Shown here in pieces: positions 144-12,606 of a stretch of DNA of 12,755 nt. The translations under genes and the position numbers were made by a program. Every line of letters starts with the position of its first letter. Within the stretch, counting starts at the first letter, position 1. Source of the stretch: Verrucomicrobiota bacterium (GTDB lineage: Bacteria > Verrucomicrobiota > Verrucomicrobiae > Opitutales > CG1-02-43-26); the NCBI GenBank assembly GCA_013289195.1, contig JABDAI010000036.1, positions 1 to 12,755 of the forward strand, written 5' to 3'. Below the pieces are notes generated by a model that saw nothing but the letters and a program-made list of their open reading frames with translations, was not told the origin of the DNA and made no database searches.

Positions 144-770
144 ATGAAAGCATATTTATGGAAGCCTTTAATAAATTATCCAAATAAATGGATTGGCATG
201 TACAATGATGATATACCTCCCGATCGATTTATTTTTTTTCGTGGAAAATTAATTACAGAAAAATTGCCCACGCCCATTATCAATTTTGAATGCTCAAAAG
301 AGCGAATAGAAAAATTTGGGACGATTCGCACTACAACTGGATCACCCATAGTAAGAAAAGACGTGTTGGCAATTTGTATAGATTTATTTGAGACTCAAAT
401 TCAAACTTTTGATGTAGAACTGCATACACAAAATGGAGTTTTATATGATTATAAATTGATCAATATTTTAAATTTAGTAGAAGGAGTTAATTTAGAGGAA
501 TCTATTTGCGAATATTTTACTGATAAAAAAGCGATACGTGGTTATGAATATTTAGTGCTTAAAGAAAACTGCTTAGGAAATTTGAATATTGCTAGATTAA
601 AAGAAACACCCTCACATATTCTTGTTTCCGAAAAAGTGAAAGAACGTTTTCACAAGCATAAAATCAAAGGAGCTCGATTTATCGAACCAGAAGAATACTA
701 TGGGGAAATTTATAATTTAAAAAAAGTCTTTGAAGGTGTTGGAAGAGTATGGCCACCTGAAAAAAAATAA
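144..770 (+). CDS. Imm11-type (DUF1629) immunity protein
   Basis: This 208-residue soluble protein has no signal peptide or membrane segment, so it should act in the cytoplasm. The pattern fits the Imm11/DUF1629 family, the type of MXAN_0049 in Myxococcus xanthus. It has a YDYKLINILNLVEGVN strand-helix near residue 101, a central YEYLVLKEN segment near 134, and a C-terminal ILVSEKVKERFHKHKIKGARF block near 159-179. That block matches the family ending 'ilvse-lk..l...gi.G.rF'. Such proteins bind and neutralise the toxin encoded immediately upstream. The start is 5 bases after the upstream stop with no good Shine-Dalgarno sequence, so translation is probably coupled to the toxin. The specific partner is inferred from adjacency. 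The family call is from remembered motifs, not a search. Confidence 0.7.
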   Translation: MKAYLWKPLINYPNKWIGMYNDDIPPDRFIFFRGKLITEKLPTPIINFECSKERIEKFGTIRTTTGSPIVRKDVLAICIDLFETQIQTFDVELHTQNGVLYDYKLINILNLVEGVNLEESICEYFTDKKAIRGYEYLVLKENCLGNLNIARLKETPSHILVSEKVKERFHKHKIKGARFIEPEEYYGEIYNLKKVFEGVGRVWPPEKK

Positions 771-889
771 AAACTTTGTTTTAAGATATTGTAAAAACGA
801 TTTCATTTTGTAACAATTCAATCAACTTATTTGTGATTGTGTCTGTAAATAGTTAATGTATGTGTGTTCTTTGAAAAATAAGCTAGAGA
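771..889. other. Short AT-rich gap between immunity gene and displaced Rhs fragment
   Basis: I see no gene, clear terminator or promoter here. Recognisable Rhs coding sequence resumes abruptly around 893-905, so a recombination junction probably lies in or near this stretch. No terminal inverted repeats or transposase remnants are visible in it. Confidence 0.4.
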
Positions 890-892
890 TTT

Positions 893-1927
893 CGAATAGT
901 TAATATTGCCGTCTACGATGGTCTAGGAAGGCGATTAATAGTAAAGTCCGAATACGAGGGAAGTCCTCTGAAATTAAAAATTATTATGATCCTGAAGCAG
1001 AGTTTCTTGAAATTGGACTAGAAGTCGATGGACATAAAATATGGAAGATCTATGGACCGGATCTCAACGGTCAATATGGAGCATTCAATGGAATAGGAGG
1101 CTTAGAAGCGCTAATTGATAGCGAAAGTGGAAAGCCTTTGTATTTTATAAGTGATCTATTTGGTCATATTGCAGGGTATTTTCGATGAAAATAATCCATC
1201 CTGGAATCCAGATAATATAGACCCCTATGGGAATGTTGAATGGAAGTACTTAGAAGAAAAAACAAAAGCAGAAGCAACAACCGAAGCAGAAATTGAAGAA
1301 AAAGACGAAGACGCTTTAAAAAGAGTAGCCCAAAGTATTTTCTGGAGAAGCCGACGAAGCGATATCACAGGATTAGTATATATGGGAGCACGATATTATC
1401 ATCCATTAAGTGGAAGATTTATAAGCCCCGATCCCTTTGGCCATAGTGGAAGTTTAGATTTATATAATTATGCGGATGGAGACCCAATAAATTACTTCGA
1501 TCCGGATGGAAGATTACTCATGAAGAGTTGGGGGAAGGTAAAAAAATTTTCAGTAAAACATGGAAAAGTGGGATTAGATGGAGTGCAATTTGGACTAGAT
1601 ATAGCAGGAATGGCGCCAGTACTAGGAGCAATACCCGATATAGCAAATGCCGGAATCCATATACTCCGAGGACAATATGTAGAAGCAGGCCTATCGGCAA
1701 CCGCAGCAATACCGATAATAGGAGATATTGCCGGAGCGGCAAAAATAGCTGGTACGGTTTATGAAGGAGTAAATGCAGGAAAGAAGAGTTTTACAAAAGC
1801 TGCGGATAAAGAATTAAAAGCAATGGGCTATCAACACCATCATATTATTAGCGATACGCATCCTAAGACAAAGAATCATGTGTTATTGGAAATGACGAAC
1901 TTTGGATTAATTCGATTATTAAATTAA
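893..1927 (+). pseudogene. Displaced Rhs 3' end: core end, pretoxin linker and truncated AHH nuclease, with two frameshifts
   Basis: The segment starts inside the Rhs core (NIAVYDGLGRRL in frame 2, 902-937) and has no start codon. Near 958-975 the coding sense moves to frame 1 (NYYDPEAEFLEIG, then KIYGPDLNGQYGAFNG). It returns to frame 2 at the T-run 1179-1182, where removing one T restores GYFDENN. From there it runs through the Rhs landmarks YMGARYYHPLSGRFISPDP, NYADGDPINYFDPDGRL (the core/tip boundary) and a hydrophobic Gly/Ala/Pro-rich pretoxin linker (about 1575-1760). It ends with YQHHHIISDTHPKTKNH, which looks like the start of an AHH nuclease domain. TAA comes only about 18 residues after the His cluster, far short of a full domain. 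Codon choice (many GGA, ATA, CTA) differs from the neighbours. It is a silent or decaying Rhs tip; a sequencing indel could explain either frameshift. Confidence 0.85.
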
Positions 1928-2126: not shown

Positions 2127-3629
2127 ATGCTTAAACAAATCATGCAAATGCAGGCACCTCGATCCCCTTCGGGTGACCATTTTATTGGTTTAAATGATAA
2201 AAATGAAATTGTTTTTAAGGAACGAGATGAAATATTGCAAATGGGCAGAGAAGCCTTACAATTTCGCAAAAGAATTGTGCAAAAAGTTATTGAAGAACAA
2301 AGCGACTCTCCTCGAATGATTGGATTGGTAAAGTCCACATTAGGAAGATATCCAGAACAACTCTTAACGGCAAACGACCTTATTGCGCTTAAGAATAAAA
2401 TTATTGCGATAGAAACTAAATCTTATGCTCCTGAAATCGTAAAATTTGCTCACGGTTACCTACGTGAGAGTCTTGTTAAACACTTTGGCGCTGATCTATT
2501 AAAAGAATATAACGCACAGTCTCCAAAATATAATGAAATTATAGATTTGCTTGATAAACTCGATGTCGATCTTGTTTCAGATTCTTTGGATGCTGTTCAC
2601 TATATTAATGCAGTGATTTTAGATAATTTTGAAAAAGAAATTTTAGAAAAAATTGATCAATCAGTCCAAACAAATCCAGATCTCCTTTTAAAAACCTTAC
2701 ACGAACTCCAAAAATCCAATTTACATAATCATTATGTTTTGAGAAAATTAATAGCTCAAGCAGAACTTTGGAAAGTGATGCAAGAAAATCCAAAATTACA
2801 AGAATTCCCCTTTAAAGACATATGGCGCCTCTGTATAGACTTCAAATATCAAGTCTACGGAGCTTATATATTTGAAAATGAACCTGGATATATGGTCGCA
2901 AGTTTAAAGGCTTTGCAATTTAGCCTGGAATGCAAAAATCCAACTTATCAAGATTACATTGAAATCAATAAAAAATGCGGTGAGAATGTTTATGGAACTT
3001 TAACTTCTTGGCAAGACTCAGAATATATATGTGATGACACGACCAAAGGATTCCTAGATACTTCCCTCAGAACTCAAGAAGAATTCTTTCATATACCTTT
3101 CATAGATGAAGAAGGCCTTAAAGACTTGCAGGAAAGAAGCAAAAATTCTTTATTCTTCCACCTAGATACAAAGGCTACTATAGGCAAGGGGTCTTTTAGG
3201 ATAGATTCAGAAGAGCTTTCCAAAGAACAAAATATTAGCAAAATGCAATCCCTCTTTACACATCATCAGAAATTAATTGCCCAATCACAGAATAGAGCAC
3301 AACGCCTTATTGCCCACTTATGGCTAGCTCGAGAACTGGAACTCCATCACCACTTTTGCGATGGAAACGGACGAAGCGCTGATAAACTTCTACTCGCCTT
3401 ACTAGCCAATGATCCAGAACTCTCAATGATACTCTATGACTCCGATCTCAATTACATGGATGGCAATGGACCCATTGGCTTTATTCAGAGAATTCTTTCA
3501 GCTATGCACTTCTTTAACAAAACTTGTGGTCATGAAGAAATTTCTTTAACTTTCTCTCAGATTGACGAAATGACCAATATTTCTCAGAAACCCTCATGGC
3601 GCTATTACCATCCAAACGATGAAGCGTAG
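2127..3629 (+). CDS. Fic-domain protein, putative protein-modifying (AMPylating-type) enzyme
   Basis: This 500-residue protein has no signal peptide or membrane segment. The C-terminal part carries a Fic motif HHFCDGNGRSADK at residues 408-420, with catalytic His408, Asp412, Asn414 and Arg416. Fic enzymes transfer a nucleotide monophosphate or a related group to a target protein, often as bacterial effectors acting in host cells or as toxins. The usual final Arg of HxFx(D/E)GNGRxxR is Asp419 here, so activity or substrate may differ. I see no clear inhibitory (S/T)xxxE(G/N) helix; SQIDEM at 477-482 is only a partial match. Residues 1-370 are helical, charged and unrecognised, and Fic proteins with such large N-terminal regions are often effectors. 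No Shine-Dalgarno sequence is evident at the ATG, and a second Met follows at residue 6. No antitoxin-like gene sits beside it, which argues against a classic Fic toxin-antitoxin pair. Confidence 0.85.
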   Translation: MLKQIMQMQAPRSPSGDHFIGLNDKNEIVFKERDEILQMGREALQFRKRIVQKVIEEQSDSPRMIGLVKSTLGRYPEQLLTANDLIALKNKIIAIETKSYAPEIVKFAHGYLRESLVKHFGADLLKEYNAQSPKYNEIIDLLDKLDVDLVSDSLDAVHYINAVILDNFEKEILEKIDQSVQTNPDLLLKTLHELQKSNLHNHYVLRKLIAQAELWKVMQENPKLQEFPFKDIWRLCIDFKYQVYGAYIFENEPGYMVASLKALQFSLECKNPTYQDYIEINKKCGENVYGTLTSWQDSEYICDDTTKGFLDTSLRTQEEFFHIPFIDEEGLKDLQERSKNSLFFHLDTKATIGKGSFRIDSEELSKEQNISKMQSLFTHHQKLIAQSQNRAQRLIAHLWLARELELHHHFCDGNGRSADKLLLALLANDPELSMILYDSDLNYMDGNGPIGFIQRILSAMHFFNKTCGHEEISLTFSQIDEMTNISQKPSWRYYHPNDEA

Positions 3630-3842: not shown

Positions 3843-5737
3843 CTAATCTTTTACTTTAAGCTTAACATGGACACTTTCTTGGCAGAATTGATCCACAGCA
3901 GTTATAGTATAACCTCTAGCCCGACATTTAGAAACCTTTTTCTTGAATTCCAAATCCGAGTGAGCTGATATTGTAGCAATCACTTTATTGTCTCTATAAA
4001 TCCTATAGAATACAACATTCGGTGAATGGCTCGCACTCCACGATGCCTCGAGGAAACATTCTGTTTTATTTAAAAACTTATTTTTTTTAATACAACCTTT
4101 AAACTTACGCGGAGGAAGTGGAGGATAAGTATACTGTCCAAAAATAGCACCAGTACATCCACCGCTAATTACCACAGATACTGTACTACCAGCAGTACCA
4201 GCAGGTACAGTGGCAGTAATCGAGTTTGAAGAATCTATAGTAAAATCCGCCTCTTTACCACCAAATTGTACGGAAGTAATACCACAAAAACTATCTCCAT
4301 TAATTGTCACTTTATTATCTGTACAATCTGGAGTAACATTGAAGATTTTTGTTGCAGGAGGAGTCCATACTGTAGCTTCAACAATCGAAGCGTCATTATT
4401 AATCCAAGTAACAACTGTGTATCCGTCACTACTCACAGAAAGGGCAGGGAATACAGAATTTGTGTCTGGATTAGAAATAGTAAAAGGAGTGGTCCGTGCG
4501 TTACTTAAATGGAGTAATATGGAAGCTTGAACAACATATATATTATTCTCTAAATTCGGCCAAGCAACAAATACATTTCCACAATAATCAATGCCGACTT
4601 TTGGGCTGGAAAATTTAGGGTCTGCAGTTGGAAGAGTACTAGAAACAGTTATAGGTGATGTCCAGGCTTTTCCTCTAAATGAAAGTGTCGAAGACTTAAT
4701 CGTGTTTACGCCGTTGACCACTGTCTCAAAAATCACAGCTGCATCACCAGTAATAGGATTAACCACGATTAGAGGAGCCACTGTTTGTAATGACGGTGAA
4801 GGAAAGGTTGACAAATTAATACCCGTAGCAATATTCAAAGGTGACGTCCAACTGGTCGCTCCAGCTGGAAGAGTTGAAGACTGAAGAACGGATACTCCAT
4901 TAATTATGGACACCCAAACTGCAGTTAAATTACCAGCATGATCAATCCCAGAAGCTACACTCGCAAATACAGAATTTGCAGTAATCAGAAGAGGAGAACT
5001 CCAGCTGCCAGTTCCAAATGTAAGTTCACTACTATAAAAAGGTACATTGCCACCGAATATAGGTGAAGTTTGATATACACTAAAAGCGTTGTTATTCTGA
5101 GCAAGATTAAATGCTATAGCTATATGCTCGGCTGTAGCAACCGATAATGTAGGTCCCCAGGTCACTCCTCCTTTGGGAAGCGTTGAAGTGAAAGCGGTGA
5201 TATTATTATTTACATCTCTTGCCGAAAAAAAGTTCGAAAGCGCATACCCATTCGAATTAACAACGATGCCATTAGTTCCATCGATAACATTGTTACTGCC
5301 AGAAATCAATAAAGGTGTTGACCATGATGATCCAAATTGCACCGTTGAGCCTTTCTGATTAAAGGTCACACTATTAACAAAGTCCGACCAAACACCAACC
5401 GCATAACCGGAAGTATCAACTGCAATTGCAGGGAATGCTATAGGTCCAAGAGTAGGATTACCAGTAGGTGATGTAGAAGCAACGTCAACAGGGGCAGTCC
5501 AGGCACCTCCAGGTGACAAAAATGAAGATTGGACATGGGTAACATCAGAAGTAGGAGTATCAATCTGTTGCCAAAGGGCAATGGTTCTACAAAAATTGTC
5601 TGTACCTACTGATTGAAACGATGATATTGAATCAGAAACGGGCGTCAAGGGACCCCATACAGCTTCCATGAAGTTAGTAAGATGCAAGCGAACAATGCTG
5701 TCCAACAAGTTGTAGCTAAGGTTTTTGTGCTTTTCAT
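3843..5737 (-). CDS. Secreted-type beta-propeller / IPT-TIG / Fn3-like protein; signal peptide in a different frame
   Basis: The long frame (5747 to 3843) opens only with TTG. In a neighbouring frame, ATG at 5737-5735 encodes a good signal peptide (MKSTKTLATT, then core WTALFACILLTS) that runs to a stop at 5645. A one-base shift near 5670 would join it to MEAVWGPLTPVSD of the long frame, so the native gene most likely starts at 5737. Residue numbers below follow the long frame. It has about eight repeats of 50-60 residues with signatures such as WTAPVDVA, WSTPLLIS, WSSPLLIT and WTSPLNIA (residues 31-425), then 'V..G.avavW'-type strands; this fits a beta-propeller. An IPT/TIG-like domain follows (about 465-542, INGDSFCGITSVQFGG), then an Fn3-like domain (about 546-634). 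By inference it is an exported adhesion or surface protein. Without the shift the protein would stay in the cytoplasm or not be made. Confidence 0.75.
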
Positions 5738-5867
5738 AATTTCTCAAGAATTATAGTTAATATGGTTTATCATGGATTGGCCATACATATTGAATTCATT
5801 GCAAAAAAATACAAAGGTCAATATATAAAATAGGGTTCTTAGCATCTGCAGGAGTGAAAATGAAAAA

Positions 5868-6008
5868 ATGACGGTATATCAAGATCATATGACTATTTTT
5901 CTATATTTTCATGAGTATACAGACTATGTAAGTCCTTGGGATCTTTTGCTTTGGGCTGACCACTATTACACGATTCCAAACTGTGTTTTCAAAAAAAAGA
6001 TTGCGTAA
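5868..6008 (+). CDS. Possible small ORF (46 aa), unknown
   Basis: ATG at 5868 opens 46 codons beginning MTVYQDHMTIFLYFHEY and ending in KKKIA. It is rich in aromatics and has no recognisable domain. A good Shine-Dalgarno-like GGAG (5851-5854) is spaced for a different ATG at 5860, which encodes only Met-Lys-Lys before TGA. That TGA overlaps the 5868 ATG, so coupled re-initiation is conceivable. The stop falls 59 bases before the FG-GAP gene. It could equally be a remnant of a longer gene, since the frame is open for 13 codons upstream. Confidence 0.25.
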   Translation: MTVYQDHMTIFLYFHEYTDYVSPWDLLLWADHYYTIPNCVFKKKIA

Positions 6009-6067
6009 TAGACAAAATAAAATAGATACTTGGTTTGAATTTGTATTCAATTATTAATGTTACTTTG

Positions 6068-7615
6068 ATGAAAAAATATTTTAAGCTTAAAATTAGGATG
6101 GTTATTTTGTTGAGTGCTTTTATGAGCATTCTTGCAGTGACGGCGTATGTTGAGGATTTGTCTGAATCTTTTCCTGCATACTTTAATCTCAGTAGCCTTA
6201 ATGGCGGTAATGGTTTTGCTATTTATGGCATTAATCCACATGACTGGAGTGGTCATTCAGTAAGTGGAGTAGGGGATATCGATGGAGATGGTATTGCTGA
6301 TATTTTAATTGGTGCTCCAGTGGCTAGGAATCATTCAGGCCAAAGCTACGTAGTATTTGGAAGTAATTGGCCGTGGCCTGCAATCATTAAACTTGCTGAT
6401 CTTAATCGTAATAATGGCTTTGCAATTAATGGCATTAATTCAAATGATATTAGTGGCTGGACTGTCAGTGGAGCCGGGGATGTCAATGGAGATGGAATCG
6501 CTGATATTTTAATTGGGGCTTCAGGTGCTCATAGCATGGCAGGTCAAAGCTACATAGTATTTGGTAGTAAAGAGCCGCGGCTTGCAGATATTTACCTGAG
6601 TACACTTAATGGTATTAATGGCTTTGCCATCAATGGCATTAATCAAAACGATAGCAGTGGGCACTCTGTGAGTGGAGCCGGAGATGTGAATGGAGATGGT
6701 ATAGATGATATTTTAATTGGTGCTGAATTTCCTAATGGTGGGGCAGGTCAAAGCTATGTTCTCTTCGGCAGTAGACAGAGATGGCCTTCATCAATTAATC
6801 TTGCCGATCTCGATGGTAATAATGGTTTTGCCATTAATGGCATTTATCCAGATGATCGGAGTGGTTCTTCGGTAAGTGGAGCAGGCGATGTGAATGGAGA
6901 TGGCATAGCTGATATTTTAATTGGGGCTCCTTGGGCTAATAATAGCGCAGGTCAATGCTATGTGGTATTTGGTAGTAAAAAGTCATGGCCTGCAGCTTTT
7001 GATTTAAATATGCTCAATGGTGCCAATGGTTTTGCTATTAATGGCATTCATCCAAATGATGGTATCGGTTATTCTCTAAGTGAAACAGCAGATGTCAATG
7101 GAGATGGTATAGATGATATCTTACTTGGTGTAGGGATTAATAACCGTAGAGGTCAAAGCTATGTAGTATTTGGTAGTAAAGCGCGGCGGCCCACAGAATT
7201 TGATCTTGCTCAGCTCAATGGTAAAAATGGCTTTGTCATTAATCACATTTATCCAGAAAATAGCAGTGGGCAGTCTGTCAGTGGAGCAGGAGATGTGAAT
7301 GGAGATGGTATAGATGATATCTTAATTAGTGCTCCTTGGGCTATTAATGGAAAAGGTCAAAGCTACATAGTGTTTGGTAGTAAAGCGCCGTGGCCTGCAG
7401 TAATAAAGCTTACTGCTCTCAATGGTAAAAATGGTTTCGTTATTACTGGCATTCATCCAAATGATCTGAGTGGTTCTTCAGTAAGTGGAGCAGGGGACTT
7501 TAATGGAGATGGTATAGCTGATATTTTAATTGGTACTCCACAGATTATCATTAATGGGGCTACTGGTCAAAGCTACGTCGTGTTTGGAAAACGTGAATTG
7601 TCAACAGAACCTTGA
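6068..7615 (+). CDS. Exported seven-repeat FG-GAP (integrin-alpha-like) beta-propeller protein
   Basis: I start at ATG 6068 because MKKYFKLKIR followed by the hydrophobic MVILLSAFMSILAVTA is a clean Sec signal peptide; the in-frame TTG at 6035 would only add 11 residues ahead of it. The 515-residue product is almost entirely seven repeats of 68 residues. Each has the pattern NG.NGFAINGI, S..SVSGAGDVNGDGI.DILIG and GQSYVVFGS. The DxNGDGxxD loops are typical Ca2+-binding sites of FG-GAP blades. Seven repeats match the number of blades in an integrin alpha head, so one complete closed propeller is likely. Repeat 5 is divergent (SETADVNGDG for SGAGDVNGDG), and repeat 6 has HIYPEN in place of GI.P.D. 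Such proteins are surface or secreted adhesins, or carbohydrate or protein binders; the ligand is unknown. No LPXTG or autotransporter anchor is visible. Confidence 0.85.
   Translation: MKKYFKLKIRMVILLSAFMSILAVTAYVEDLSESFPAYFNLSSLNGGNGFAIYGINPHDWSGHSVSGVGDIDGDGIADILIGAPVARNHSGQSYVVFGSNWPWPAIIKLADLNRNNGFAINGINSNDISGWTVSGAGDVNGDGIADILIGASGAHSMAGQSYIVFGSKEPRLADIYLSTLNGINGFAINGINQNDSSGHSVSGAGDVNGDGIDDILIGAEFPNGGAGQSYVLFGSRQRWPSSINLADLDGNNGFAINGIYPDDRSGSSVSGAGDVNGDGIADILIGAPWANNSAGQCYVVFGSKKSWPAAFDLNMLNGANGFAINGIHPNDGIGYSLSETADVNGDGIDDILLGVGINNRRGQSYVVFGSKARRPTEFDLAQLNGKNGFVINHIYPENSSGQSVSGAGDVNGDGIDDILISAPWAINGKGQSYIVFGSKAPWPAVIKLTALNGKNGFVITGIHPNDLSGSSVSGAGDFNGDGIADILIGTPQIIINGATGQSYVVFGKRELSTEP
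6200..7590 (+). repeat. In-gene tandem repeat, period 204 bp, seven copies
   Basis: The FG-GAP repeats are also similar at DNA level. Strings such as AATGGAGATGGTAT, GATATTTTAATTGG and GGTCAAAGCTA recur at 204-base steps. The exact 68-codon spacing of the GD(V/I)(N/D)GDG loops shows little indel drift, as expected from duplication followed by point changes or from ongoing gene conversion. Confidence 0.8.
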
Positions 7616-7840
7616 GCAAGCTCAAACAAATTTCTTAGAATCATAGTTTCGAAGGTGACATTTATCAATTTATTGAAATCAGAGATTCGCCCAATAATAA
7701 TGCAATGCACTATTTGGCCTCTTTTATCTAGTCCATAACATACCATGCTTCTATAGAAATTTCATAAAGAATATTAAATAAGGCATACGAACAGTATTTA
7801 GCTAAGTAATAGCTTCAAAATTCGTTAGCAAATTTTCAAT

Positions 7841-7873
7841 AAAAACCCCGCCGGCATGCCGCGAGGTTTTATT
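7841..7873. terminator. Bidirectional Rho-independent terminator
   Basis: A GC-rich stem around CCGGCATGCCG is flanked by AAAAACC on the left and GGTTTTATTT on the right. It therefore ends in U-runs when read from either strand. It lies between the convergent FG-GAP gene (ends 7615) and LRR gene (ends 7914) and can serve both. The stem has some mismatches. Confidence 0.75.
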
Positions 7874-7913
7874 TCTACTGAAGTTTTAAAGGTTCTGTAT
7901 TTCTTTCAAACAA

Positions 7914-9746
7914 TCAATTAAGTTTTCCTGAATTATGTTTATGGATGATGGTAAGTAATCGTTTGGCATTTCTATACAAGGATCGATGATACATATCATA
8001 TTGGTTTTTTAATAGATGTAATAATAATTCTTCCACAGCTTTAATCTCTTGAGCTGGAATTGCAGAAATTAGAGCTTCATTTGTAGATGCAAGCGTTACA
8101 ATCATACGTAATATATTTATTATTTTATTAGGTATTGTGCTAGTATCATAGACTTTAAGTTGACTTGGTTTTCTATAACATACTTTGCATTCCTCCACTA
8201 ATTTTTTAATCAATTTACTTAAAACGGAAGAATTTTCAAAATTAAAGTTTGAAGTGCAATACACTTCGGCTAATTTTGATATTAAATTTAAGGCTCTGCA
8301 ATAAGCATCAATAGCACTTATTTCATTTGTATGTGATGTTCCAAAGAAGTAGTACACGTTAGGGCCGAAATCGTGGATCTTAGGAATATCTAACAAAGTT
8401 ATTTCTAGGGCTTGACTGATTTCTTTTCCTGGGGCTTTTAAAAACATTTCTTTTAAAAAGCTTGTTGCTTGGTTTTGAGTATAAAGGTCACGCGAATTTA
8501 AGATTAAGTGGCAAGCCGTATGAAAACTTTTTACTTCCTTCTGTAAAATCGTAGGTATTTCTTTTTCACAATCAGTCTTTTCGTTTTTAAGGGTTTGTTT
8601 GCTCAATTCTTGTATTTTTCGCTCTTCGATTTGTTTGTGTAAATTGTCGAATTCTTTTTTTACACTGGAATTTCGAATGTACCCAAAATCGAGGCTTTGT
8701 AGTTGCGGAAATTTTCCGAGTAGGCATGATAGACTCTTTGTTGTAATATCTCCACAAGAGAGGAAACGTAACTCTGGAAGTTGAAAAAGTAGGAGATTGG
8801 CCTCACTCTTAGTCTCCTCGAAAATCTTATTGCCCACATACTTTCTCTCAATGTCATTGCAAATGCTACCACAAGAGACAGAAGTCAATTTTTTAAGATT
8901 AAAAAGGACCAGTGGTGCCCTAATGTCTCTAAAAAAAGAGACAGAAGTCAGATTTTCAAGATTCCTAAGAACCAGAGATTTGCAAACGAAATCACAAGAG
9001 AAAGAAGTCAAACTATCAAGATTAGCAATCACCAGGGGAGCACGAACTATACCCAAAAATAAAGAGGTTATACATTCAAAATTAGGCATAGTGAATTTTG
9101 TTGTATCCATACAAAAGAATGAAAGCAATTTTTTAGGATTAGAAAATGTCAGTTGCCCTTGATGATTAATACCGTGGTAAGAGAAAGAGGTCAAATTTTT
9201 TAAATAAGGAATCTTTACGGGCATGAGAAACTCACGACAAGTAAGAGAGGTCAAATTTGGGCATTGATGAGCGAGGATGTCCAACACTTTGTTAAGGTCA
9301 TCCAGGTTATTATCAGTAACGGTTGGCAAAGTAACAGCTTCAAGATTTGTTAGCAAATCTTTATTAACACGATCTTCCATCAAATCGCGTAAGAGTTTTG
9401 TTCTAGGAATATTTTTAGTCCTAACATTTATCATTATATTTAAAGGATTATTGTTTTTTGCAAGCTCTAATTCCTTAGGCGAAAGCAATGAATTACTAGT
9501 AGTGAAAGGAGCATCAACCAACAAATGCTCGGTTTGTCTCGAACGAGAATCTACCCGTTCTACACAGCTTTGATCGAAAGTAGCAAAAACTCCTTTTACT
9601 TGTGGGTGACCTCGACACCATTGAATTAGACGATTGTAAATGCCGTAAGCACCTCTTTTTTTCATGTCCATACTCACTTTCATATAAAAACGTGCGACTG
9701 AAATACTGTTACGTGCATCTTCTATAATATCTTGTCTTGTATTCAT
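7914..9746 (-). CDS. Leucine-rich-repeat / alpha-helical protein, candidate effector
   Basis: This 610-residue protein has no signal peptide or membrane segment. Residues about 134-355 hold irregular LRR-like units of 21-23 residues, with the recurring pattern NL..LTS.SC......LVL (for example NLDSLTSFSC at 242 and NLKKLTSVSC at 283). This suggests a solenoid for protein-protein contact. A charged helix, possibly a coiled coil, follows (about 363-395, VKKEFDNLHKQIEERK). The rest (400-610) is a helical domain I do not recognise. The N-terminal 130 residues are also helical and unassigned. LRR proteins without export signals in host-associated bacteria are often secretion-system effectors, but that is inference. 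No F-box, E3 ligase or catalytic motif is visible. Start: ATG at 9746 with no clear Shine-Dalgarno sequence, about 40 bases after a good promoter. The shared terminator lies at its 3' end. Confidence 0.7.
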   Translation of the reverse strand: MNTRQDIIEDARNSISVARFYMKVSMDMKKRGAYGIYNRLIQWCRGHPQVKGVFATFDQSCVERVDSRSRQTEHLLVDAPFTTSNSLLSPKELELAKNNNPLNIMINVRTKNIPRTKLLRDLMEDRVNKDLLTNLEAVTLPTVTDNNLDDLNKVLDILAHQCPNLTSLTCREFLMPVKIPYLKNLTSFSYHGINHQGQLTFSNPKKLLSFFCMDTTKFTMPNFECITSLFLGIVRAPLVIANLDSLTSFSCDFVCKSLVLRNLENLTSVSFFRDIRAPLVLFNLKKLTSVSCGSICNDIERKYVGNKIFEETKSEANLLLFQLPELRFLSCGDITTKSLSCLLGKFPQLQSLDFGYIRNSSVKKEFDNLHKQIEERKIQELSKQTLKNEKTDCEKEIPTILQKEVKSFHTACHLILNSRDLYTQNQATSFLKEMFLKAPGKEISQALEITLLDIPKIHDFGPNVYYFFGTSHTNEISAIDAYCRALNLISKLAEVYCTSNFNFENSSVLSKLIKKLVEECKVCYRKPSQLKVYDTSTIPNKIINILRMIVTLASTNEALISAIPAQEIKAVEELLLHLLKNQYDMYHRSLYRNAKRLLTIIHKHNSGKLN

Positions 9747-10268: not shown

Positions 10269-11171
10269 CTAGTTCTTCAAATTGAGATAATGCTTTGCAT
10301 GTCGGATAACATCGGCATTAAATTTCTGATAGACTTTAGATGTCACTGTCCAAGAATGCCAGAATATTGGGATTTCCAATATTTTATCGTCGTAGAGTTG
10401 AACTAGCTTATTTGCCTTTAACTCCTGTACAATATCAATTTTTGGAATTAGCCCATAGCCATAACCTAAAAGAGCATACTGCTTGAATCCACGGACTGAA
10501 GGAATAACCTGAAAATTAAGTTCGGGCTTATGCAAGCCAAAAAATTTCTCTAGATAGTGTTCATGTAAGAAGTCGTTTTTGTCAAACTTAAGCGCTGGAG
10601 CATCCAAAAGATATTTGATTTGGTTTTTGGTGCCATCCAAAGTTGGAAAATAGCTCCTGATAAATTTGGGTGAAGCAACAAGAAGGTATTCCATCTTCCC
10701 TAGAAATGTGACATTGCTGCCCGCTATTTCCTTTCCTGAAGTGGAAAGGCAGGCGGAAACTAAACCTTTTTTAAAATAGTCTAAAGTCAGATCCTGATCG
10801 TCTGCCATAATCTCCAGCAGAATATCTTGGCAAAGGTCAATTTTATCAACCACATCTAAAAACCAGGTCTCCAAACTATCGCGATTTAGAGCAATGGCAA
10901 TACGCAGTTTCGTTGTTCGAAATTTCATCTGTTGCTCAAATGTGTCTTCGAGCAAACAAACTCGCTTAAAATGTCCAATAAGAGATTTTCCTAACTCCGT
11001 TGGTTTATAGGGTTGTATTCGAATAAGAACTGTTTCGCCGTAGTAAACCTCAAGATTTTTTATCCTTTGCGACACGGCAGATTGCGTGATGTACAGTTTT
11101 TTTGCTGCTGCTTCAAAACTCTGCAATTCTATAACGGCATGCAAGGCCTCGATGGATTTGTAGTCTAACAT
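10269..11171 (-). CDS. argP: LysR-type regulator of the ArgP (IciA)/LysG family
   Basis: This 300-residue protein matches the usual family length. The N-terminal winged helix-turn-helix (residues 1-65; MLDYKSIEALHAVI, SFEAAAKKLYITQSAVSQRIKNLE) is characteristic of ArgP/LysG. The MLDY start and the QPYKPTELGKSLIGH segment after the wing are shared with that subfamily. The remaining 210 residues form the ligand-binding domain, ending in an YGLIPKIDI segment like those seen in ArgP. In known systems, ArgP or LysG senses arginine, lysine or their analogues and activates the exporter argO or lysE. Here the exporter lies on the opposite strand behind a 116-base divergent promoter region, the classic LysR arrangement. 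I see no good terminator after its TAG. The subfamily assignment is strong; the effector molecule is inferred. Confidence 0.85.
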   Translation of the reverse strand: MLDYKSIEALHAVIELQSFEAAAKKLYITQSAVSQRIKNLEVYYGETVLIRIQPYKPTELGKSLIGHFKRVCLLEDTFEQQMKFRTTKLRIAIALNRDSLETWFLDVVDKIDLCQDILLEIMADDQDLTLDYFKKGLVSACLSTSGKEIAGSNVTFLGKMEYLLVASPKFIRSYFPTLDGTKNQIKYLLDAPALKFDKNDFLHEHYLEKFFGLHKPELNFQVIPSVRGFKQYALLGYGYGLIPKIDIVQELKANKLVQLYDDKILEIPIFWHSWTVTSKVYQKFNADVIRHAKHYLNLKN

Positions 11172-11187
11172 TTTATCTATTAAAAAA

Positions 11188-11242
11188 ATTCATGTATAAT
11201 TAAAATTATTAATTTTACTTATACAACAATTCATGGTATAAT
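11188..11242. promoter_or_regulatory. Direct repeat in the divergent promoter, possible ArgP operator
   Basis: ATTCATGTATAAT (11188-11200) recurs as ATTCATGGTATAAT (11229-11242), starting 41 bases apart, about four helical turns. The right copy contains the -10 of the exporter operon. LysR regulators bind paired sites of this kind between divergent genes, and this is the only strong repeat in the 116-base gap. Confidence 0.4.
11214..11242 (+). promoter_or_regulatory. Promoter of the B3/B4-lysE operon
   Basis: TTTACT (11214-11219), a 17-base spacer and a perfect TATAAT (11237-11242), within the perfect extended -10 TGGTATAAT. The start should fall near 11249 and give a leader of about 40 bases. 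I see no riboswitch fold in this short leader. Confidence 0.7.
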
Positions 11243-11276
11243 AAAAGCTCATTTTTAAACAATTTAGAAAAAGAAA

Positions 11277-11282
11277 AGGAGG
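11277..11282 (+). promoter_or_regulatory. Consensus Shine-Dalgarno site (AGGAGG)
   Basis: AGGAGG lies 5 bases before ATG 11288 and fixes that start. It is by far the best ribosome site in the window; most other genes here have none that is visible. Confidence 0.8.
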
Positions 11283-11287
11283 ATATC

Positions 11288-11995
11288 ATGTTAGCAAGAA
11301 TAGAAAATAAAGTTTTAGAAAAATATCCGGAGACAGAAATAGCCTATTTGGTGGCTAATGTAACTGTGAAAAAAAACGAATCCTTCGTCAATGAATTGAA
11401 GGCAGGATTAATAGAAACAGTAAAGGCAATGGGAATTGACTCTACAAATTTAATTTCGCATCCGAATATTTCTAGCTGGAGAAAAATATACCAAAATGAT
11501 TTTAATGTAAAAACCCAGAGTTACAACTCTTCTGTAGAAGCTCTTCTCACCCGCATTGTAAAAGGTAAGAAGCTGTGGGATATTTGTAATATCGTAGATT
11601 TATACAATTGTTGTTCCATCTCCCATTTATTGCCAATGGGAGGATATGATCTCAATAAAGTTTGTGGTGATATTACAATTCGTTTTGGCCAAGAAGGCGA
11701 TAACTTTCTTGGTTTGGGAAGACGAGAACCTGTGGTAGTTGAAAGTAACCATGTAATTTATGCTGATGACGTCAAGGTACTCTGTTGGCTTTGGAATTAT
11801 CAGGATTCCTCTGAAACCTGCATTGATGAGAATACAAAGGAGGTCCTATTTTTTATTGATTCAATTCAACAATCTACCCACCAATCGCTCAAAAAAGCCA
11901 TTCAAGAATTAATGAGTAATCTCGAAAAGATTAATGGCATTCCTATCAATCACGGTATTTTGAACTTAAATTCACCTCAAGCAATTCTAAAATGA
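11288..11995 (+). CDS. Free-standing B3/B4-domain protein, probable tRNA-editing (deacylase) protein
   Basis: This 235-residue soluble protein is homologous to the B3/B4 editing domain of the phenylalanyl-tRNA synthetase beta chain, but it stands alone. Family landmarks include W64-RKIY, the block EALLTRIVKGKKLWDICNIV followed by DLYN (84-107), the turn MGGYDL (117-122), CGDITIRFG.EGD (126-138) and VIYADDVKVLCWLWNYQDS (156-174). In synthetases this domain hydrolyses wrongly charged tRNA. I recall one free-standing member, CtdA, reported to remove canavanine from tRNA-Arg. It is the first gene of an operon with a LysE/ArgO exporter (ATGA overlap), divergent from an ArgP-type regulator. By inference it clears tRNA charged with an arginine or lysine analogue. 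Substrate and catalytic residues cannot be read with certainty from sequence. Expression should follow the regulator and the strong promoter and ribosome site upstream. Confidence 0.8.
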   Translation: MLARIENKVLEKYPETEIAYLVANVTVKKNESFVNELKAGLIETVKAMGIDSTNLISHPNISSWRKIYQNDFNVKTQSYNSSVEALLTRIVKGKKLWDICNIVDLYNCCSISHLLPMGGYDLNKVCGDITIRFGQEGDNFLGLGRREPVVVESNHVIYADDVKVLCWLWNYQDSSETCIDENTKEVLFFIDSIQQSTHQSLKKAIQELMSNLEKINGIPINHGILNLNSPQAILK

Positions 11996-12606
11996 ATATA
12001 TTATATCCTTTAATAAAGGGCTTCATAGCGAGCGGATGCTTAATTATAGCCATTGGAGCACAAAATGCCTTTGTTATTAAGCAAGGCCTGAGAAGACATC
12101 TTACTCTGTTAACGGCTTTAGTTTGTTCGCTAATCGACGCTGGGTTGATTATATCAGGTGTGTTAGGCTTGGGGCAGATTATTTCGACCTACCCGGAATT
12201 TATCGAGTTCACGAAGTATTTTGCTAGTATATTTCTGTTTATCTATGGCATCATTGCATTCAGATCTGCATTTAAAATCAAAAAAACTGCCAAGACTTCA
12301 GCTGATGCAATAGCCTTACCTACAATAAAAGAAACGATCATTTTGCTCCTTGCATTGAGTTTGCTGAACCCCCATGTATATCTTGATACAGTGATTCTTT
12401 TAGGGAGCATTGCATCTGAACATCAAGCCGACGAAAAACTGTACTTTTGTCTGGGAGCCATTATTGCATCATTTTCATGGTTTTTTGCAATTTCTTATGG
12501 AGCGCAGTTATTAAATCCCTTTTTTCAAAAAGACAGTTCATGGAAATTTATCGACGGTTTTACTGGCTTAATGATGTGGGGAATTGCCTTTACTCTTCTT
12601 ATATAA
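11992..12606 (+). CDS. LysE/ArgO-family amino-acid exporter
   Basis: This 204-residue inner-membrane protein has about six hydrophobic segments (near 5-25, 36-63, 75-92, 113-137, 149-172, 186-204) and the usual LysE length. Family signatures are GAQNAFVIKQGLRR (22-35) and LLNPHVYLDTVILLG (124-138). NPH.YLDT is typical of the LysE/ArgO branch rather than RhtB. Characterised members export lysine, arginine and the analogue canavanine, driven by the membrane potential. Its ATG overlaps the stop of the B3/B4 gene (ATGA, 11992-11995), so the two are translationally coupled. Divergent control by the ArgP-type regulator is expected. Whether it prefers lysine or arginine cannot be decided here, so I give no gene symbol. 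Confidence 0.9.
   Translation: MNILYPLIKGFIASGCLIIAIGAQNAFVIKQGLRRHLTLLTALVCSLIDAGLIISGVLGLGQIISTYPEFIEFTKYFASIFLFIYGIIAFRSAFKIKKTAKTSADAIALPTIKETIILLLALSLLNPHVYLDTVILLGSIASEHQADEKLYFCLGAIIASFSWFFAISYGAQLLNPFFQKDSSWKFIDGFTGLMMWGIAFTLLI

What the first reader, a model, noticed from the sequence alone, without database searches (positions are those of the whole stretch)
10269..12606. ArgP regulator, B3/B4 tRNA-editing protein and LysE/ArgO exporter form one candidate analogue-resistance module
Seen: a divergent ArgP-type regulator and a coupled operon (ATGA overlap) of a free-standing B3/B4 domain protein and a LysE/ArgO exporter, with a strong promoter and consensus ribosome site. Known: ArgP/ArgO systems export arginine and canavanine, and I recall that the B3/B4-type protein CtdA deacylates canavanyl-tRNA-Arg. 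Inference: the cell exports a toxic arginine or lysine analogue and clears the tRNA it has mischarged. The two defences would be induced together by the sensor of the same amino acid. That combined logic is, as far as I know, not described as a unit.
Basis: partly seen in the sequence, partly recalled or inferred. Interest (0 to 1): 0.72.

Follow-up and report, generated by a model that had tools for sequence, protein, structure and literature searches.

The report
ArgP-controlled tRNA-editing and export pair
A probable Chlamydia-relative carries a lysine/arginine-type sensor gene that appears to switch on, from one shared control site, a protein that probably strips wrong amino acids off tRNA and a pump of the family that expels basic amino acids; the pairing recurs in related bacteria, but which amino acid it guards against is still unknown.

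Summary
In detail: divergent ArgP (10269-11171), B3/4 protein (11288-11995) and LysE exporter (11992-12606, ATGA overlap). The linkage recurs. Of 232 Chlamydiota genomes, 11 have ArgP: in 8 it is divergent from and beside a B3/4 gene of the window's clade (all 8 such genes found; 3 also have lysE), in 3 beside lysE. All 12 intergenic regions examined, the window's included, carry TATTAATTTTACTTAT with at most one mismatch. B3/4 and lysE thus look like alternative or joint outputs of one ArgP switch.

Unexpected: in other Chlamydiota the domain is fused to lysyl-tRNA synthetase, and a sister B3/4 group lies in cassettes with a 2OG-Fe dioxygenase, mostly with LysE and a CASTOR-like ACT protein.

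Best reading: an ArgP-regulated "export and edit" defence against a lysine- or arginine-like amino acid, identity open. New variant of a known kind.

The parts
10269..11171 (-). ArgP/LysG-family LysR-type regulator, 300 aa
   Evidence: TIGR03298 above cut-off; nearest solved relatives M. tuberculosis Rv1985c 3isp 1.6e-38 and LysG 6xtu/6xtv
11207..11222 (+). conserved block TATTAATTTTACTTAT, putative ArgP operator overlapping the -35
   Evidence: exact in 7 and one mismatch in 5 of 12 argP intergenic regions; 0 of 3600 Markov-resampled intergenics reached 0-1 mismatch; exact in the window
11214..11242 (+). promoter TTTACT-17-TATAAT for the B3/4-lysE transcript
   Evidence: TAAAAT/TATAAT 14-15 bases after the block in all 12 regions
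11277..11282 (+). ribosome-binding site AGGAGG
   Evidence: sequence
11288..11995 (+). free-standing B3/4 (CtdA-like) putative aminoacyl-tRNA deacylase, 235 aa
11992..11995 (+). ATGA stop/start overlap of B3/4 and lysE
   Evidence: sequence
11992..12606 (+). LysE/ArgO-type amino-acid exporter, 204 aa
   Evidence: PF01810; best NCBIfam TIGR00948 162.3 bits, under its cut-off of 213.65; groups with the ArgP-linked LysE of Chlamydiota, 6 rows, support 100/99

Best explanation
ArgP senses a basic amino acid (lysine, arginine or a close analogue) and activates one promoter from the site at 11207-11222. The transcript makes two outputs: the B3/4 protein, which hydrolyses a wrong amino acid from tRNALys or tRNAArg, and LysE, which lowers the cytoplasmic pool of that amino acid. 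Across Chlamydiota the same switch drives lysE alone, B3/4 alone or both, so export and tRNA editing act as alternative or layered answers to one stress. Shown by sequence: the gene families, their order, the recurrent divergent linkage, the shared intergenic block, the deacylase-type fold (predicted). Inferred: ArgP binding to the block, ligand, deacylase activity, which tRNA and which amino acid, transport direction and substrate.
For: All 8 window-clade B3/4 genes found in 232 Chlamydiota genomes are divergent from and adjacent to argP; the other 3 of 11 argP genes are divergent from lysE (9 of the 11 ArgP matches pass the curated cut-off, G009 and G109 are partial). One block is shared by the B3/4-type and the lysE-type loci (12 of 12); exact WTTAATTTTACTTAT occurs 7 times in the 11 genomes, each time at argP. 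Whole-length CtdA fold, with W64, R89, Y106, N107, G118, D160 and N170 identical in all 33 rows compared (three long-branch rows left out). LysE relatives within about 2.1 kb in 8 of 17 free-standing B3/4 loci other than the window. LysG of M. tuberculosis upregulates the neighbouring lysE in the presence of lysine (PMC5648196, abstract). B3/4 domains fused to LysRS in the same phylum show that the domain is also used beside tRNALys charging.
Against: No activity, ligand or binding data. 5 of 8 ArgP-B3/4 loci have no LysE. The ArgP tree is unresolved, so the direction of gain or loss is not shown. The LysRS-fused B3/4 group falls on the CtdA side of the split, not with the window, so it does not fix the window's tRNA. 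LysE misses the curated cut-offs of both basic-amino-acid exporter models. With one mismatch allowed, the 15-base pattern is no commoner genome-wide than its reversed control (39 against 42 hits in 11 genomes).
Confidence: 0.68

Rival explanations
1. The B3/4 protein is a true CtdA: it clears canavanyl-tRNAArg, and LysE exports canavanine.
For: The two solved B3/4 proteins, 9mkl (2.7e-14) and CtdA 9f7e (1.2e-13), both described as CtdA, are the nearest solved chains by sequence and by fold. A distant homologue from C. perfringens, 35% identical to the P. canavaninivorans protein, also prevented canavanylation (PMC10018355). That ArgP/ArgO systems export canavanine is recalled.
Against: Mean 20.7%, at most 22% identity to three rhizobial/Pantoea CtdA relatives, the 100/100 split, changed motif residues (Y120 instead of E, W167 instead of R, D173 instead of Q), no guanidine riboswitch, no recognised canavanine gene among nine window ORFs. 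Legume canavanine is not an obvious exposure for a chlamydia-like endosymbiont (inference).
Confidence: 0.13
2. No toxin is involved. The unit corrects ordinary lysine/arginine imbalance in an intracellular scavenger: excess host lysine or arginine leads to mischarging, which B3/4 clears while LysE vents the excess.
For: The M. tuberculosis LysG answers to normal lysine (PMC5648196, abstract). Five loci have ArgP-B3/4 without a LysE. LysRS-fused B3/4 in the phylum looks like constitutive proofreading.
Against: I know of no mischarging by normal lysine or arginine that needs a dedicated inducible editor (recalled, not searched). The sister cassettes with a 2OG-Fe dioxygenase gene point to a non-standard amino acid.
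Confidence: 0.25
3. The B3/4 gene is a passenger in an ordinary argP-lysE cassette, without a joint function.
For: Three Chlamydiota loci are argP-lysE without B3/4 (L092-L094).
Against: B3/4 stands directly under the shared block without lysE in 5 of 8 loci; 8 of 8 linkage; overlapping stop and start in the window.
Confidence: 0.04

Closest known systems
CtdA, canavanyl-tRNAArg deacylase (PMC10018355; PDB 9f7e, 9mkl)
   Different: About 21% identity; split 100/100 from its relatives in the tree; different motif residues; under ArgP with LysE instead of beside canavanine-degradation genes or under guanidine riboswitches
ArgP-ArgO / LysG-LysE systems (M. tuberculosis Rv1985c-Rv1986, PMC5648196, abstract)
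   Same: ArgP/LysG regulator beside a LysE-family exporter with a shared promoter region; regulator model TIGR03298 above cut-off
   Different: A tRNA-editing gene stands between regulator and exporter, or where the exporter would be
B3/4 editing domain of PheRS beta
   Different: Free-standing, not part of a synthetase
LysRS fused to B3/4 in other Chlamydiota (found here)
   Same: Same phylum (if the window is chlamydial), same domain family
   Different: Fused in cis to LysRS at either end; lies on the CtdA side of the B3/4 tree

Membership tests
CtdA | free-standing B3/4 fold over the whole protein | tested here: met
CtdA | deacylates canavanyl-tRNAArg | not testable with these tools
   needs purified protein
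CtdA | groups with CtdA relatives in a tree | tested here: not met
   window clade plus sa3 (31 rows) split from CtdA relatives, LysRS-fused and sa2 rows (40) with 100/100 support (unrooted, long branches flagged, and a constrained tree scored slightly better than the free one)
CtdA | motif CRRWNWRQGxRTRL and GGE, as in rhizobial/Pantoea relatives | tested here: not met
   window has CWLWNYQDSSETCID and GGYD; that these residues set specificity is inference
CtdA | guanidine riboswitch or canavanine-degradation genes nearby (frequent, not universal) | tested here: not met
   no such Rfam match at gathering score in the window or 12 other loci; none recognised among nine window ORFs; the window ends 149 bases after lysE
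ArgP/LysG | TIGR03298 above curated cut-off | tested here: met
   292.7 against 273.55 bits
ArgP/LysG | divergent from a target gene, with a shared intergenic site | tested here: met
   binding to the site not tested
ArgP/LysG | responds to lysine or arginine | not testable with these tools
   needs an assay
LysE/ArgO exporter | PF01810 above gathering score | tested here: met
   115.9 against 25.6 bits
LysE/ArgO exporter | lysine (TIGR00948) or arginine (NF006801) exporter model above cut-off | tested here: not met
   162.3 against 213.65 and 151.3 against 298; leaves the family intact, the substrate open
LysRS-fused B3/4 | one ORF with LysRS | tested here: not met
   235-aa free-standing ORF

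The most novel reading that the evidence does not exclude
The free-standing B3/4 proteins of chlamydia-like and Legionellales-like bacteria are shields against a modified lysine- or arginine-like antimetabolite that circulates among intracellular bacteria and their hosts. Some relatives make it themselves: in sister cassettes a 2OG-Fe dioxygenase of a family that includes free-amino-acid hydroxylases stands beside LysE and B3/4, with a CASTOR-like ACT protein and mitochondrial-carrier proteins. The window would be a listener: it senses the compound through ArgP, exports it and clears the mischarged tRNA.
Probability: 0.2. Interest if true: 0.88.

Novelty: new variant of a known kind. Interest (0 to 1): 0.7.

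Why it matters
It puts a likely tRNA-proofreading enzyme under a classic basic-amino-acid sensor, so translation quality control would be an inducible response beside export. It extends CtdA-like editing to a lineage and context where canavanine is not the obvious target, and the LysRS fusions suggest post-transfer editing for lysine charging, which is readily testable. If the antimetabolite reading holds, it would reveal chemical warfare by an unusual amino acid among intracellular bacteria.

Tried and rejected
No whole genome is held for the window, so its organism is inferred only: its B3/4 lies in a 23-row set (100/96) whose loci with organism titles are all chlamydial, and its ArgP and LysE are nearest to Chlamydiota rows in trees that held few others. 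Viral contigs gave no relative. In the 143 genomes of the order of G011 only G011 matched at 1e-15; the order of G010 held one genome. LysE gave no solved relative up to E 0.1. PADLOC gave two weak matches, none to B3/4.

Idea considered and weakened: that the LysRS fusions fix the window's substrate as tRNALys. The A1 profile scores LysRS-fused domains at 110-155 bits (one, L054, at 71) against 56-77 for three strict CtdA relatives, and identity points the same way (mean 31% against 21%), but the trees place the LysRS-fused group on the CtdA side. An AU test holding all 60 rows other than the 11 CtdA-type rows together gave p 0.628, the held tree scoring 3.4 log units better than the free search, so the printed tree is not the best one. 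That no genome had both a fusion and a free-standing copy was not used as evidence: by simple proportion about one would be expected.

Rows dropped: trees used 15 of the 120 listed window-clade proteins (186 found) and 17 of 62 fusion proteins; PheT (L053) and L012 were left out as very long branches; L066, L069, L012 and PheT were left out of the conserved-position count. L007 enters as a shortened ORF (a TGA inside; ambiguous bases), L009 as a partial ArgP. L094 has a truncated ArgP and a split LysE and was left out of the LysE tree. PMC11580382 was not read (the look-up failed).

Full report
What is there. The window's last 2.5 kb holds argP (10269-11171, minus), a free-standing B3/4 gene (11288-11995, plus) and lysE (11992-12606, plus), the last two sharing ATGA. 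Family assignments pass curated cut-offs for ArgP (TIGR03298), B3/4 (PF03483) and LysE (PF01810); the lysine- and arginine-exporter models are below their cut-offs.

The linkage is recurrent. A protein search found 186 B3/4 homologues; the 120 listed are 50-92% identical, and of the five named with a taxon four are chlamydial and one Anaplasmataceae. A scan of species genomes gave 12 loci: seven titled as chlamydial, one unassigned bacterium, three Gammaproteobacteria/Legionellales and one distant Clostridium. argP lies divergently beside B3/4 in 8 of these 12, lysE directly downstream in 3. In 232 Chlamydiota genomes, 42 match the B3/4 profile; 8 are of the window's clade (G001-G007, G009). 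ArgP (E up to 1e-40) is in 11 of 232, 9 over the curated cut-off: those same 8 genomes, plus G072, G090 and G109, where it is divergent from lysE (in G109 ArgP is cut short and lysE split). LysE relatives of the window's are in 18 of 232; in G001, G002, G004, G006 and G009 none was found at 1e-8. The slot opposite argP therefore holds lysE (3), B3/4 (5) or B3/4 followed by lysE (3, and the window).

One control site. Alignment of 12 argP intergenic regions (window, 8 B3/4-type, 3 lysE-type) shows a block TATTAATTTTACTTAT, exact in 7 and with one mismatch in 5, followed after 14-15 bases by TAAAAT or TATAAT. In 3600 Markov-resampled intergenics the best match never had fewer than two mismatches. 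In the 11 genomes, exact WTTAATTTTACTTAT occurs 7 times, all at argP; the other 4 genomes have a one-mismatch copy there; the 28 other one-mismatch hits are at background level (39 in all against 42 for the reversed control). I infer that this is ArgP's activation site.

Unexpected finding 1: B3/4 fused to lysyl-tRNA synthetase. Many chlamydial B3/4 matches lie in frames of 684-818 aa. Pfam shows PF03483 with the OB-fold and class II synthetase core in 8 of 8 tested, B3/4 at the N end in 5 and at the C end in 3. In 17 genomes the B3/4 match and a TIGR00499 LysRS match listed lie on one contig in frames of the same length. A search with the B3/4 part of one fusion found 62 proteins, all with PF03483 and PF00152; where a usable name is given it is lysine--tRNA ligase or lysyl-tRNA synthetase, with chlamydial taxa where a taxon is named. 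7 of the 8 window-clade genomes have a LysRS frame of 523-550 aa, i.e. unfused; in G001 no full LysRS was found. Searches listed no paper on such a fusion (listings only; the held library lacks most subscription journals).

Unexpected finding 2: a dioxygenase-exporter-editor cassette. The sa3 loci carry, in overlapping or near-contiguous order, mitochondrial-carrier proteins (L050, L052), a PF10014 2OG-Fe dioxygenase (L050, L051, L052), LysE (L049 and L050 adjacent; L051 on the other strand; not seen in L052), B3/4 and a small ACT_7 protein (Pfam in L050; similar ORFs in L049 and L052). PF10014 occurs in only 4 of 232 Chlamydiota genomes: these three loci and G195, where it is followed by LysE and by an ORF that looks by eye like the first part of B3/4 near a contig end; the later part of a B3/4 and an ACT-like ORF (by eye) are on another contig. 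The dioxygenase of L051 has weak solved relatives, BsmA-domain proteins (1.7e-8) and L-isoleucine-4-hydroxylase (2.6e-4); the ACT protein of L050 matches Atu0741 (2.6e-13) and the human arginine sensors CASTOR1/2 (about 1e-9). L049 has no PF10014 gene but an arginine deiminase, a DDAH-like ORF, an amino-acid kinase and an amino-acid permease. These contexts point to arginine-like amino acids and suggest a self-made compound, but nothing was measured.

Comparison with other B3/4 contexts. Free-standing B3/4 loci other than the window (L001-L011, L047-L052; 17) have a LysE relative within about 2.1 kb in 8 (L003, L005, L007, L008, L011, L049, L050, L051); some contigs are short. Of 11 plasmid B3/4 loci that I picked and fetched, 8 carry annotation; 4 of these have an EamA or MFS transporter within two genes, none a gene annotated as LysE or ArgP (the gene tables are incomplete). 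Linking tRNA editing with export is thus a wider theme; the ArgP version was seen only in this clade as far as I looked. Papers: PMC10018355 parts 1-4 of 6 read; PMC12508155 and PMC11415595 passages only; PMC5648196 abstract; others as search listings. The listings showed no paper joining ArgP or LysE with a B3/4 deacylase.

Verdict. Canavanine should be dropped as the default substrate. The best-supported model is an ArgP-driven defence that edits tRNA and exports a basic amino acid; ligand and tRNA need the biochemical test in the next steps.

Noticed in passing
L021, L022, L027, L029, L034, L037, L039, L042 (Pfam-checked); further fusions by coordinates, e.g. L043-L046: B3/4 domain in one frame with class II LysRS, N-terminal or C-terminal, in Chlamydiota: a candidate post-transfer editing domain for LysRS.
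   Followed up: partly
L050:2570-6907, L052:3226-7105, L051:4804-7160, L100:2754-4375 and L101:346-1342: Cassettes around a PF10014 2OG-Fe dioxygenase: mitochondrial carriers (L050, L052), LysE (not seen in L052), B3/4, ACT-type ORF (not reached in L051; by eye in L101). PF10014 is in 4 of 232 Chlamydiota genomes, all four at such a locus.
   Followed up: partly
L050:6500-6907: ACT_7 protein downstream of B3/4 resembles human CASTOR1/2 arginine sensors and Atu0741.
   Followed up: partly
L008:4921-5754, L008:6869-7681, L010:3653-4480: Mitochondrial-carrier-like ORFs beside B3/4 genes of Gammaproteobacteria/Legionellales MAGs (Pfam on two, similarity for L008:6869-7681); the B3/4 ORFs of L010 and L011 have long C-terminal extensions that look ankyrin-like by eye.
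   Followed up: partly
L047:3063-5685: In G185 a free-standing B3/4 gene that lies near the LysRS-fused group follows a PALP enzyme and an ornithine-cyclodeaminase-family gene, as if guarding against a made amino acid; a second copy is in L048.
   Followed up: no
window 2127-3629: 500-aa ORF without Pfam match that holds HHHFCDGNGRS, resembling a Fic motif (motif recalled).
   Followed up: no
window 144-1927: Imm11-family immunity-like ORF followed by an ORF that looks like an Rhs-type C-terminal fragment (by eye; no Pfam match).
   Followed up: no
window 3843-9746: Large ORFs: IPT/TIG protein, FG-GAP protein with seven matched stretches and a 610-aa leucine-rich-looking ORF without Pfam match.
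   Followed up: no
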